NCBI GenBank assembly: GCA_002792535.1
Contig: PFOM01000004.1
Location: 1-64,000 of the forward strand
DNA length: 64,000 bases
Direction: 5' to 3'
Source: Candidatus Peregrinibacteria bacterium CG_4_10_14_0_2_um_filter_38_24
GTDB lineage: Bacteria; Patescibacteriota; Gracilibacteria; UBA1369; LOWO2-01-FULL-3
Made by a program: the position numbers and the translations under genes. Of this stretch, positions 27,878 to 59,450 are shown in pieces. Under the pieces are notes generated by a model. The model saw only the letters and a list, made by a program, of their open reading frames with translations, did no database searches and was not told where the DNA came from. Each line of letters begins with the position of its first letter. The first letter of the stretch is position 1.

Positions 27878-28026
27878 GGAATTGTGGAATTAATATGTCC
27901 ATTCGCAATAGGTTAAAGCAATTTACCAAATCTAACATGTACGATTTAGCAAATTTGAGTCGGTCATGACCGACTCAAAAGCTTTAACAAGCTATTGCTC
28001 ACGAACATATCAATTCTACAATTCCT
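27877..28026 (+). repeat. Three-way-junction element A
   Basis: 35-nt outer arms (27877-27911/27992-28026), inner stem 27912-27919/27981-27988, hairpin 1 27922-27953 with loop TAACATGTAC, 26-bp perfect palindrome 27954-27979. Confidence 0.9.
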
Positions 28027-28046
28027 GATCAGTCAAAAAGCACGAT

Positions 28047-50453: not shown

Positions 50454-51044
50454 ATGAATCTCAAAAATTATGTTATTTCTGAGGCGAAAAATGCTATTGC
50501 GATTTTGAAGTTTGATAAGGTTATGATGGCTCATGTTGCAGGGAAATCCGATGCGACCAGAAACGGTATTATTATTCTTGTTGTTCCGGCTGTTTTTAAT
50601 ATTATTTTTGGATCGCTTAGTTTTCCTTCTGGATTTTCATCGATTTTTTCAAGGTTTCTTGTTTGGCCGCTTTTGATTCCGGTGTTTGCTTTTGTTGGAA
50701 TGATTTTTGGGGTTAGCTATGTGGCTAGAAAATATTTTCATGGAGTAGGAAATGATATTGGATTTTTCAGAGTTTTATCTTATGCAGGGGTTATTTCTTG
50801 GCTCTCTATTCCCGTTGCGGTTCTTTCAATGATTGGAGTTTTTGACATTTTTAATCTGCTTAGCATTATTAATTTGGCGGTGGTGATTATGGTTTTTGCG
50901 GTTTGTTATCATTTACTTTTGGATTACCACAAAGTTCATAAAGATGATGCTGTAAAGATAATTGCGATCGGTGTTGTCGGATATTTTGTGTTTCAGTGGA
51001 TTTTGGGGAAAATTTTGGTGGGTAGCGTGTATAGATATTTTTAA
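50454..51044 (+). CDS. Yip1-like multi-TM protein
   Basis: 196 aa, five hydrophobic segments. Confidence 0.6.
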   Translation: MNLKNYVISEAKNAIAILKFDKVMMAHVAGKSDATRNGIIILVVPAVFNIIFGSLSFPSGFSSIFSRFLVWPLLIPVFAFVGMIFGVSYVARKYFHGVGNDIGFFRVLSYAGVISWLSIPVAVLSMIGVFDIFNLLSIINLAVVIMVFAVCYHLLLDYHKVHKDDAVKIIAIGVVGYFVFQWILGKILVGSVYRYF

Positions 51045-51210
51045 AGATAGAAAAGGCAAAATTAGAGTTATATCTCTTCGCAATTTGTTTGTGCAGTTTG
51101 GCATATCTAACATGTACGATATGCCAAAAATTCAGGCATCATGATGCCTGAATTGGCACAAAAATAAATTGTTCATAGACATAACTCTAATTTTGCCTTT
51201 TCTACCTTTA
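51042..51210 (+). repeat. Three-way-junction element C
   Basis: Outer arms 51042-51094/51156-51210 including 23 perfect bp; hairpin 1 51097-51128 with perfect 11-bp stem and loop TAACATGTAC; 26-bp perfect palindrome 51129-51154 centred on CATG. Confidence 0.92.
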
Positions 51211-51258
51211 AAAAAAGGCTGTTTTGTGGTATAATGTTTAGATATAAATTAGCTATAA

Positions 51259-53124
51259 ATGGATAATAAAAAAGGACAAAATGTTGGGATAAATCCGTTT
51301 GCAGATGATGCGAATGTTGCAGGTGGGGCTCAGTTTCCCGATGATGCTGTTCCAAATGAAGATAAAACTTCCAAAAAGAAGGAGAAAAAGATGAGAAAGC
51401 CTAAGGTTATTGATCAAGATTTGGAGGAGGATAAGATGGAGGTTAAGCATAAAACTAAGAAAAAAATTAAAGGTTATGAGAATGATGTTAAGCAGTATGT
51501 GAGTGAAGTTGCGTCAAAGGGACAAAGGTCTGAATTTAAAGATTCTCTTGAGGAGGAAGGCGTTATGGCCGATAGTGATATTGGCGTTAAGAAGAAACGA
51601 AAGAGGAAGAGAAGGAAGAAAAAGGTTGTTGCTGATAATATTGAGGAGGAAAATGTTCCTTCTGTTGGGGCTACTGAGGCTAGTCCTGAGGCGGATGATT
51701 TTGCCGAGGAAGCTGTCCCTGAAGTTGTTGATGAAGAGGATTCGAAAGATATGGATATTGAGTTGGATGATGAAATTGTTGAAGAACCTGTGGAAGAACA
51801 AAAATTTGAAGCTGTGATTCCTAAGGAGGAAGAAGATGTGGCCGTGAAAAAGGCTGTGGTTCCTTCGGAACCTGAGGTCGTTGAACCTGAAAAAGTTGTA
51901 GTGCCACCAGTGCCACCAGTGCCTGAAGAAGCGCCTGATATATCGGAGACTTTTAATCCTTTTGGAGACGGTGTTGTGGATGATGATGATATCTCCAAGG
52001 AATCTACTGTCGTTGAAGAAAAAAAAGATGAAGGTGCTTCTATAAATCCTTTTGCTGAAACTTCTCAGAAAGAATTGGAAGATCCGAAATGGAAGGAAGA
52101 AAAGCCTAAGGAGGAAGTTGTTGAAGAGGTCTCACAAGCGCCTGCTACTACGCCTGAAGTTGTTGAGGCGAGGATAGTGCACGAAGAGCCGAAAAATGTT
52201 GAGCCGGAGGTTAAACCTATGTCTAAAATATCACCTGAGGTTATAGCGTCTAGTGAGTTTGATGATGGGGGATTCTTTTATATGCTTGAACAAGCTGGGA
52301 TAACGAAGGGCAAAATTCTTGGGGTTTTTGTGGCGTTGGTTCTTGTAATCCTTGGAATTATCGGGATATTTTATGTGCCATTTGGAGATATTTTTGGAGG
52401 AGGTGAAAAAACTGAGACCTTAGCGGAAGATCAGCAGAAAGAGGAAAAACAAGATGTCCAAAAGCCTGTTGTGGGAACTCCTGAAGTCAAAGAGGGTACG
52501 GATGCTTTGAATATGAGTGAAATTCTTGGTAATGAATATGACTATTTGATTCTTGGTAGTAATAAAATTTTGGGTGCGTTTTTTGCATTGAAACTTGGTG
52601 GGGAATTCGTGAGTCCTGAGCATAGATTTGCTTATTACATGCGGTATTTGAATGAAATGCAAAATCTATATGCTACTGATATTTATAAATTTTTGGATCA
52701 ATCGTATGACAGGAGGGCATCTCTGACGAGTTTTTTGACTAAAATGAAGAGTGAAATAGACAATGCCAAGCAAATTCAAAATGAGGTCGCAAAGGCGGCG
52801 GCAAATATAAATGTGGCTAGTCTTTCGGCTGGGGAGCAGAGAGATCTTTTTGAGAAAGAATTTTTTGCGGATACAAAAGATTTGAGAGGACAAGATTCTT
52901 TCAATAATCTTGAAAAATTTGTAGGGTTTTCGCAAAGTGCAATAAGACTTCGTGCTTATTACAAAGCCTATAATTACATTTCTGACATGTACATAAATTC
53001 TATTAAGAAACTTGAACCAAGGTATAAAGATATTTCTGCGAATTTTGATGCATTAGTGAGGGGTATACACGTTTTTGATATACCGGACTCCGATATAAAT
53101 GCAATTATTCGTTTATCTCAATAG
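51259..53124 (+). CDS. Highly charged protein with a single internal TM segment
   Basis: Acidic/basic low-complexity N-terminus, TM ILGVFVALVLVILGIIGIFYV, C-terminal helical domain. Confidence 0.75.
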   Translation: MDNKKGQNVGINPFADDANVAGGAQFPDDAVPNEDKTSKKKEKKMRKPKVIDQDLEEDKMEVKHKTKKKIKGYENDVKQYVSEVASKGQRSEFKDSLEEEGVMADSDIGVKKKRKRKRRKKKVVADNIEEENVPSVGATEASPEADDFAEEAVPEVVDEEDSKDMDIELDDEIVEEPVEEQKFEAVIPKEEEDVAVKKAVVPSEPEVVEPEKVVVPPVPPVPEEAPDISETFNPFGDGVVDDDDISKESTVVEEKKDEGASINPFAETSQKELEDPKWKEEKPKEEVVEEVSQAPATTPEVVEARIVHEEPKNVEPEVKPMSKISPEVIASSEFDDGGFFYMLEQAGITKGKILGVFVALVLVILGIIGIFYVPFGDIFGGGEKTETLAEDQQKEEKQDVQKPVVGTPEVKEGTDALNMSEILGNEYDYLILGSNKILGAFFALKLGGEFVSPEHRFAYYMRYLNEMQNLYATDIYKFLDQSYDRRASLTSFLTKMKSEIDNAKQIQNEVAKAAANINVASLSAGEQRDLFEKEFFADTKDLRGQDSFNNLEKFVGFSQSAIRLRAYYKAYNYISDMYINSIKKLEPRYKDISANFDALVRGIHVFDIPDSDINAIIRLSQ

Positions 53125-58018: not shown

Positions 58019-59450
58019 ACTTAAAATTAGTGAGGCGGCAAAAGGGCTTAGAGAAGGTAAATTCTCTTGTGAGGATTTGATGAAAGATTGTTTGGCGGAG
58101 ATTTCTCTCAAGAATAAAGATTTGAATGCGTATATTTTTGTTGATGAGAAAATGGCTTTAGCTGAGGCAAAAGAGATGGATAAGAGGTTGGAAAAAGGTG
58201 AAGATTTGGGGCATTTGATGGGAATTCCTTGTGCGATGAAAGATATTTTTAATACGAAGGGAGTGAGGACTACCTGTTGTTCTCCTATGCTAAAAGATTT
58301 TGTTCCTCCATACGATGCGGAGGTCGTGAAACGGCTTAGGAATGCGGGAATGGTGATGATTGGAAAGACGAATATGGATGAGTTCGCGTGTGGTTCAAGT
58401 ACTGAACATTCATGTTTTGGTGTAACGAAAAATCCATATGATGTTTCGTGTGTGGCAGGAGGGTCGTCTGGGGGAAGTGCGGCGGCGGTGGCTTCCGATA
58501 TGTGTATTTATGCTACAGGAACTGATACAGGTGGGTCGATTCGTCAGCCTGCTTCACTATGCGGTGTTGTGGGAATGAAAGTGACTTATGGTCGTGTTTC
58601 AAGAAGTGGCGTGACTGCATTGGCTTCTAGCTGGGATACTATTGGTCATTTTGCGAAAAGTGTTGAAGATGCTGCAATTGTTTTAAATGTAACTGCAGGA
58701 AAAGATGCAAAGGATTCTACGACTCCGGATATAGAGGTTCCGGATTATACTTCGTTTTTGGGAAAAGGTATAAAAGGGCTTAAGATAGGGATTCCTAAGG
58801 AATATTTTGGAGAGGGAATTGACAGCGAAGTTTCTGATAAAGTAATGGAAGTTGTGGTGAAGTTGGAAAAAGAAGGTGCGAAAGTGGTGGAAGTTTCTTT
58901 GCCAATGACTAAATACGCGATTGCTGCTTATTATGTTTCAATGCCGGCTGAACTTTCTGCGAATTTGGAAAGGTACGATGGAATAAGATATGGGAAAAAA
59001 CCTGTAGGTAGCGCTCCGAAGGATTTGGTTGATTATTATTTTGCGGCTCGTGGAGAGGGATTTGGAAGTGAGATTAAACGTAGAATAATGATTGGAACTT
59101 ATGTTTTGTCGGCTGGATATTATGATGCGTATTATAAGAAAGCTCAGAAAGTTCGTACGTTAATTATTCAGGATTTTAATAAAGCTTTTGAACAGGTTGA
59201 TGTTTTGATTGCTCCTGTAAGTCCTTTCCCCGCATTTAAGATAGGGGAGTTGGCTGATGATCCACTTGCGATGTATATGGCGGATTCATTGACGCTTCCT
59301 GTTAGTGCGGCTGGTGTTCCTTCGCTTGCAGTTCCGGCGGGAATGTCGAAAAGTGGCTTGCCAATAGGCTTGCAAATCATCGCGCCGCAGTTTGAGGAGG
59401 GCAGGTGTTTTACGGTTGGGGATGTGGTTGAGAAAGTTCAAGCAGAATAA
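58005..59450 (+). CDS. gatA: Asp/Glu-tRNA amidotransferase subunit A
   Basis: AGGSSGGSAAAVA, GTDTGGSIRQPASLCG amidase signature. Confidence 0.96.
   Translation: MQLNKLKISEAAKGLREGKFSCEDLMKDCLAEISLKNKDLNAYIFVDEKMALAEAKEMDKRLEKGEDLGHLMGIPCAMKDIFNTKGVRTTCCSPMLKDFVPPYDAEVVKRLRNAGMVMIGKTNMDEFACGSSTEHSCFGVTKNPYDVSCVAGGSSGGSAAAVASDMCIYATGTDTGGSIRQPASLCGVVGMKVTYGRVSRSGVTALASSWDTIGHFAKSVEDAAIVLNVTAGKDAKDSTTPDIEVPDYTSFLGKGIKGLKIGIPKEYFGEGIDSEVSDKVMEVVVKLEKEGAKVVEVSLPMTKYAIAAYYVSMPAELSANLERYDGIRYGKKPVGSAPKDLVDYYFAARGEGFGSEIKRRIMIGTYVLSAGYYDAYYKKAQKVRTLIIQDFNKAFEQVDVLIAPVSPFPAFKIGELADDPLAMYMADSLTLPVSAAGVPSLAVPAGMSKSGLPIGLQIIAPQFEEGRCFTVGDVVEKVQAE

What the first reader, a model, noticed from the sequence alone, without database searches (positions are those of the whole stretch)
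51042..51210. Element C: third copy with the longest outer stem (about 53-55 nt arms)
The 5' arm begins at the stop codon of the preceding gene and includes 23 perfectly paired bases (AGAAAAGGCAAAATTAGAGTTAT). Hairpin 1 TTTGGCATATC-TAACATGTAC-GATATGCCAAA and the palindrome AATTCAGGCATCATGATGCCTGAATT follow the same template as A and B.
Basis: seen in the sequence. Interest (0 to 1): 0.83.

Follow-up and report, generated by a model that had tools for sequence, protein, structure and literature searches.

The report
Mobile palindrome with self-copied stem
The finding is a real ~170-base DNA palindrome, one of about 15 copies in a tiny uncultured bacterium (Candidatus Peregrinibacteria group), that looks like a hitch-hiking mobile DNA element whose long stem has a different sequence in every copy yet always pairs with itself, apparently because one arm is recopied from the other.

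Summary
Window 51038-51214 folds into a three-way-junction hairpin (z about -13 on either strand). It belongs to a multi-copy family: 14 exact loop matches (16 model hits) in this 1.1-Mb genome and 8-14 hits in each of three congeners. A scan of 85,488 species returned 17 matches, all in Peregrinibacteria/Peribacteria/Gracilibacteria records. No Rfam family matches.

Only the loop CTAACRTGTACG, the hairpin-2 CRTG loop and a 3' bulge are conserved. The stems differ between copies but pair almost perfectly, with strong covariation.

The evidence favours mobile DNA over RNA. G-T and A-C mismatches are equally frequent in the outer stem. Copies lie as often against as with co-directional genes and mostly avoid divergent promoters. 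Empty sites exist: G001 lacks element C. Near-identical copies occupy different loci. Element B is inverted between sister species. Two copies sit in-frame inside queG. In one relative, palindromes are nested inside each other.

Best explanation: a non-autonomous, MITE/REPIN-like palindromic element whose arms are kept complementary by template switching, sometimes picking up an inverted copy of host flank. The mobilising enzyme is unknown; REP transposase and reverse transcriptase each fail as a common cause. It is a new variant of a known kind.

The parts
51038..51214 (+). Element C, whole inverted repeat (read on the strand that carries CTAACATGTACG)
   Evidence: 56-nt arms, 86% complementary; fold z -12.7; model R1 hit 51065-51191, 110 bits
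51049..51071 (+). Outer stem, 5' arm, 23 perfect pairs; sequence private to this locus
   Evidence: sequence, fold; orthologue in G003 differs but is also paired
51080..51094 (+). Middle stem, 5' side
   Evidence: fold; covariation of helix 1 in A1
51097..51128 (+). Hairpin 1 with the invariant loop CTAACATGTACG (51107-51118)
51129..51154 (+). Hairpin 2, perfect palindrome with the conserved CRTG centre
51156..51172 (+). Middle stem, 3' side, with a bulge (AAN in most copies)
   Evidence: alignment A1
51181..51203 (+). Outer stem, 3' arm
27880..28012 (+). Element A, same family, between rsmE and the H+-pyrophosphatase gene
37334..37472 (+). Element B, same family, between groES and groEL; inverted in G002, empty in G001
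50454..51044 (+). Upstream gene, weak Yip1-domain membrane protein
   Evidence: Pfam PF04893, E 2.2e-5, below its cut-off
51259..53124 (+). Downstream gene, no family match; promoter-like site at 51207-51235

Best explanation
Element C is one copy of a non-autonomous palindromic mobile DNA element (MITE/REPIN-like) of Candidatus Peregrinibacteria. It acts as DNA: when single-stranded or extruded it folds into a T-shaped hairpin (long stem, three-way junction, two small hairpins with conserved loops). It spreads by insertion, mainly just downstream of stop codons and sometimes into the tip of an older palindrome. Its arms stay complementary while their sequence drifts because template switching recopies one arm from the other during replication. 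The same process can flip the core and can extend the stem into flanking host DNA as an inverted copy. Shown here: the family, the structure, empty sites, different-locus copies, the inverted core, nesting, and no strand bias. Inferred: template switching as the cause, and the ssDNA or cruciform intermediate. Unknown: the enzyme that moves it.
For: Copy number and clade restriction. Covariation 0.804 against 0.223 for shuffles and at most 0.170 for slid structures; 42 compensatory WC-to-WC changes against 67 one-sided changes in ten element pairs. Outer-stem mismatches G-T 25 against A-C 32, p=0.43, so no RNA-type wobble preference. Orientation to co-directional genes 17 same against 19 opposite; convergent 23 against divergent 4, p=3e-4. 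Empty sites at C, B, L066b, L078, L079 and L081. Core of B inverted in G002. Near-identical element at two loci about 3 kb apart in different species (L055 against L203/L069). Nested palindromes in G007. Inverted copies of resident flank, for example L078 CTAAAGGAAAAG of CTTTTCCTTTAG and L081 GGAATGCCAAGAA of GGAAGTGCCAAAGA. Template switching is known to homogenise inverted-repeat arms and invert spacers (PMC8604942) and to maintain hairpins (PMC8794818).
Against: No mobilising enzyme was identified: Y1 transposase is absent from G001-G003 and G007, reverse transcriptase is absent from G000, G007, G021 and G080, and tyrosine recombinases do not follow copy number. The inverted flank copy is significant at only six of ten loci and not at C itself (p=0.21). 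Hairpin 1 alone shows a slight G-T excess (31 against 17), so some single-strand selection on the core is possible. All genomes are drafts or metagenome assemblies and some copies sit at contig ends.
Confidence: 0.62

Rival explanations
1. It is a structured RNA (cis-regulatory element or small RNA) with conserved loops and freely covarying stems.
For: Strong covariation, conserved loops, slight G-T excess in hairpin 1 (31 against 17); element B lies inside the groES-groEL unit and is presumably transcribed.
Against: No wobble excess in the outer stem (25 against 32); no strand preference relative to genes (17 against 19); core inverted at the groE locus; presence/absence between close relatives; no Rfam family.
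Confidence: 0.12
2. It is mainly a bidirectional transcription terminator or mRNA 3'-end protector that genes keep at their stop codons.
For: Copies often start within about 10-30 bases of stop codons and avoid divergent promoter regions.
Against: No terminator-like site with a T tract was found at C; orthologous genes do without it; two copies lie in-frame inside queG and one inside groES-groEL; a terminator needs neither the conserved loops nor a 30-50 bp stem.
Confidence: 0.15
3. It is a recombination site (attC-like folded single strand or Xer/IMEX-type site) used by a tyrosine recombinase.
For: Folded core and long imperfect stem resemble attC in outline; 13 of 14 genomes tested encode tyrosine recombinases.
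Against: No cassette arrays seen; the element is dispersed; recombinase number does not follow element number (G012, no elements, six hits; G001, 11 elements, two hits); the outer stem has no conserved core sites.
Confidence: 0.06
4. The inverted repeats are chance AT-rich palindromes or assembly artefacts.
For: The genome is AT-rich and drafted; some copies lie at contig ends.
Against: Fold z about -13; the same element at the same locus in independently assembled species; seven copies in the single-contig G007 genome.
Confidence: 0.01

Closest known systems
REP/REPIN elements mobilised by RAYT (TnpA-REP)
   Same: Short, palindromic, mostly intergenic at gene 3' ends, non-autonomous, thought to move as folded single strands; a two-REP 'clover' fold is proposed (PMC3116915).
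   Different: REPs are defined by a conserved sequence in high copy; here stem sequences are private to each copy. The Y1 transposase is absent from three of the four congeners.
Rickettsia palindromic elements (RPE)
   Same: About 150 bp, palindromic, several families, some inserted in-frame in genes (review PMC10969869); here two copies sit in-frame in queG.
   Different: Described in a different phylum; the present family is mainly intergenic and its core is a three-way junction with conserved loops.
Correia and ERIC-type MITEs
   Same: 130-200 bp with terminal inverted repeats, intergenic, can invert (Correia inversion cited in PMC10969869).
   Different: Their inverted repeats are conserved across copies; here they are not. 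No direct target duplication was seen.
Template-switch mutation of inverted repeats (quasipalindrome correction)
   Same: Homogenises arms, creates perfect stems, inverts spacers (PMC8604942, PMC8794818).
   Different: A mutational process, not an element; in yeast the reported spacer inversions were short (2-5 bp substituted), whereas here an ~80-nt core appears to be inverted.

Membership tests
REP/REPIN-RAYT system | A RAYT (Y1 transposase, PF01797) in the genome | tested here: not met
   None in G001, G002, G003, G006, G007; one hit with an internal stop in G000
REP/REPIN-RAYT system | Conserved palindrome sequence shared by copies | tested here: not met
   Stem sequences differ between copies; only the loops are conserved
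REP/REPIN-RAYT system | Extragenic location avoiding divergent promoters | tested here: met
   23 convergent against 4 divergent; 4 of 68 inside an ORF by a crude ORF call, of which two are confirmed genes
MITE (broad sense) | Short, non-coding, terminal inverted repeats, multiple copies, presence/absence between relatives | tested here: met
MITE (broad sense) | Terminal repeats and target duplication shared with a parent transposon | tested here: not met
   Terminal repeats differ between copies; no direct target duplication seen at empty sites; no parent transposon found
Rickettsia palindromic elements | Palindromic, inserts in-frame in protein genes | tested here: inconclusive
   Met for queG in two genera, but most copies are intergenic; sequence not compared with RPE
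Integron attC | R'/R'' core sites, cassette array, IntI | tested here: inconclusive
   No arrays seen in the fetched loci; only the general tyrosine recombinase family was searched, IntI not separated
Rfam structured RNA | Match above gathering score | tested here: not met
   0 matches in the window; only chance miRNA hairpin matches far below threshold

The most novel reading that the evidence does not exclude
The element inserts by fold-back priming. The 3' end of the folded element, joined to target DNA, pairs with its own 5' arm and copies the adjacent host sequence, so every insertion rebuilds the stem and adds an inverted copy of target DNA. This would be a transposition mode that yields an inverted rather than a direct target duplication, resembling in outline the rolling-hairpin replication of T-shaped terminal palindromes.
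Probability: 0.17. Interest if true: 0.85.

Novelty: new variant of a known kind. Interest (0 to 1): 0.6.

Why it matters
It is, as far as the searched open literature goes, an undescribed palindromic mobile element family in the Candidate Phyla Radiation. Its stems are almost perfectly paired but private to each locus, with orthologous copies, empty sites, an inverted core and nested insertions all in hand. That makes the long-discussed idea that template switching creates and maintains hairpins directly testable in bacteria, and cautions against reading strong stem covariation as proof of RNA function.

Tried and rejected
Rfam at gathering threshold and relaxed: nothing meaningful. RNA reading tested by wobble asymmetry and by gene orientation: not supported. 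A first wobble count over the whole stem gave an A-C excess (176 against 107) and was set aside because it included the conserved internal loop; the outer stem alone is balanced. 'The whole outer stem is an inverted copy of the target': rejected as a general rule, because near-clean empty sites (groEL downstream, L079) contain at most the outermost ~7-12 bases. Automatic folding of full/empty pairs misplaced insertion points in divergent pairs and was not used, except L078, which was checked by eye; one search timed out. An apparent inversion of element A in G001 was rejected: the two copies are of different subfamilies, so this is replacement, unlike B. Y1 transposase, reverse transcriptase and tyrosine recombinase as mobilisers: none follows the element. 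Viral contigs: no match.

Full report
WHAT IS THERE. The window lies in a 1.10-Mb draft genome. Folding energy is far beyond chance on either strand (z -12.7 and -13.8). No Rfam family matches.

THE FAMILY. The 13-base loop CTAACRTGTACGA (one mismatch allowed) occurs 14 times in the genome against one for the reversed-pattern control. All 14 sit in the same structure. A covariance model built from them finds 16 copies in this genome, 14, 11 and 8 in the three congeners, and one to seven in 14 further genomes of the order; 72 of 90 genomes have none. Of 85,488 species scanned by pattern, all 17 matches are Peregrinibacteria, Peribacteria or Gracilibacteria records. Viral contigs gave none.

WHAT IS CONSERVED. 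Loop 1, the CRTG centre of hairpin 2 and an AAN bulge are nearly invariant. All stems vary but pair: 85% of cells are standard pairs, 24 of 26 pairs show changes on both sides, and the covariation score is 0.804 against 0.223 for shuffles. [quoted passage not shown] Outer arms match their own partner (median score 13) and not those of other copies (median 7).

DNA OR RNA. If one RNA strand were selected, G-U intermediates should far exceed A-C (general knowledge of structured RNAs). In the outer stem they are 25 and 32 (p 0.43). Between co-directional genes the element points with them 17 times and against them 19 times. It lies between convergent genes 23 times and divergent genes 4 times. 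This is the distribution of a tolerated insertion, not of a strand-specific regulator. Hairpin 1 shows a weak G-T excess (31 against 17), so a role for one folded strand of the core is not excluded.

MOBILITY. At the C locus G003 has the element, G001 has a short empty spacer and G002 a different neighbouring gene. Between groES and groEL, G000 and G002 carry it, while G001 and the other family genomes that could be read have a short spacer. Downstream of groEL, G002 is full and G000, G001 and G003 lack it. At L081 three congeners are empty and only G000 is full. A near-identical element, including about 20 bp of outer stem, sits at different loci about 3 kb apart in G001 and in G000/G003. The core of B is inverted in G002 relative to the genes, with recognisable sequence. 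At some sites a different subfamily or family occupies the same place in different species (L076, L074, g9, g11).

HOW THE STEM IS MADE. In several full/empty pairs the outermost stem is an inverted copy of host flank that is also present in the empty relative. The copy is on one side only: six of ten loci reach p<0.05 by simple shuffling, uncorrected for testing both sides, and C does not (p 0.21). The clearest by eye are L078 (11-12 bases) and L081 (13 of 14 bases with one indel). In the single-contig genome G007, most copies are embedded in another palindrome, and in one case (L188) the halves of an older copy enclose that palindrome and a younger copy. Insertion into the tip of an older hairpin would also build long stems. 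Published work shows that template switching homogenises inverted-repeat arms, inverts spacers and creates hairpins (PMC8604942, PMC8794818). This accounts for private but well-paired arms, for compensated changes and for the inversion of B. That it is the cause here is an inference.

WHAT MOVES IT. Not settled. Y1 transposase is absent from the other three congeners, reverse transcriptase from four element-bearing genomes, and tyrosine recombinases do not follow copy number.

VERDICT. A real, multi-copy, clade-restricted palindromic mobile element, best filed as a new variant of MITE/REPIN-like DNA. It works like those elements but fails the REP membership tests of conserved stem sequence and linked RAYT.

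Noticed in passing
window 59450-59556; also G000:C23:4391 and C23:39137; L238 and L239: A second palindromic family with private outer stems (28-31 bp arms or longer) and a conserved ~58-nt core GAGCTTANNCTTCTT...AATGCNCTC; three exact matches in this genome, and it occupies the L076 site in G002 and G003.
   Followed up: partly
L074:9915-10041 (G000), L163:1501-1624 (G016), L240-L242: In queG (TIGR00276) an element of this family sits in-frame just before the first iron-sulphur motif in two genera; in G001-G003 the same spot holds another palindrome family (core CAAACGTCCTCGGCCGGCCACCAAGGGAGCC...) with compensated stem changes.
   Followed up: partly
L184-L190 (G007): Seven copies in a single-contig genome, all on the same strand, most nested in a second palindromic element (GGGACGGTGTCAATTTCCC...GGCACCGGCCCGCAAAGGCTCCGATACGCCC); L188 shows three-level nesting.
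   Followed up: partly
window 51108-51117 and 51138-51145: Both loops centre on the self-complementary ACATGT/CATG; loop-loop (kissing) contact between the two hairpins or between two copies is possible. Not tested.
   Followed up: no
G000:C11:53326-53685: The only Y1 transposase hit in this genome carries an internal TGA.
   Followed up: no
window 28037-28068: Behind element A lies a second partial copy of its 3' arm (AAGCTATTACTCACGAACATAT), a likely relic of an older insertion.
   Followed up: no
window 61747-61805: Three perfect copies of a 25-base stretch in a tandem array of a 17-base unit (GTGGGTGCGAGCGTGTC).
   Followed up: no
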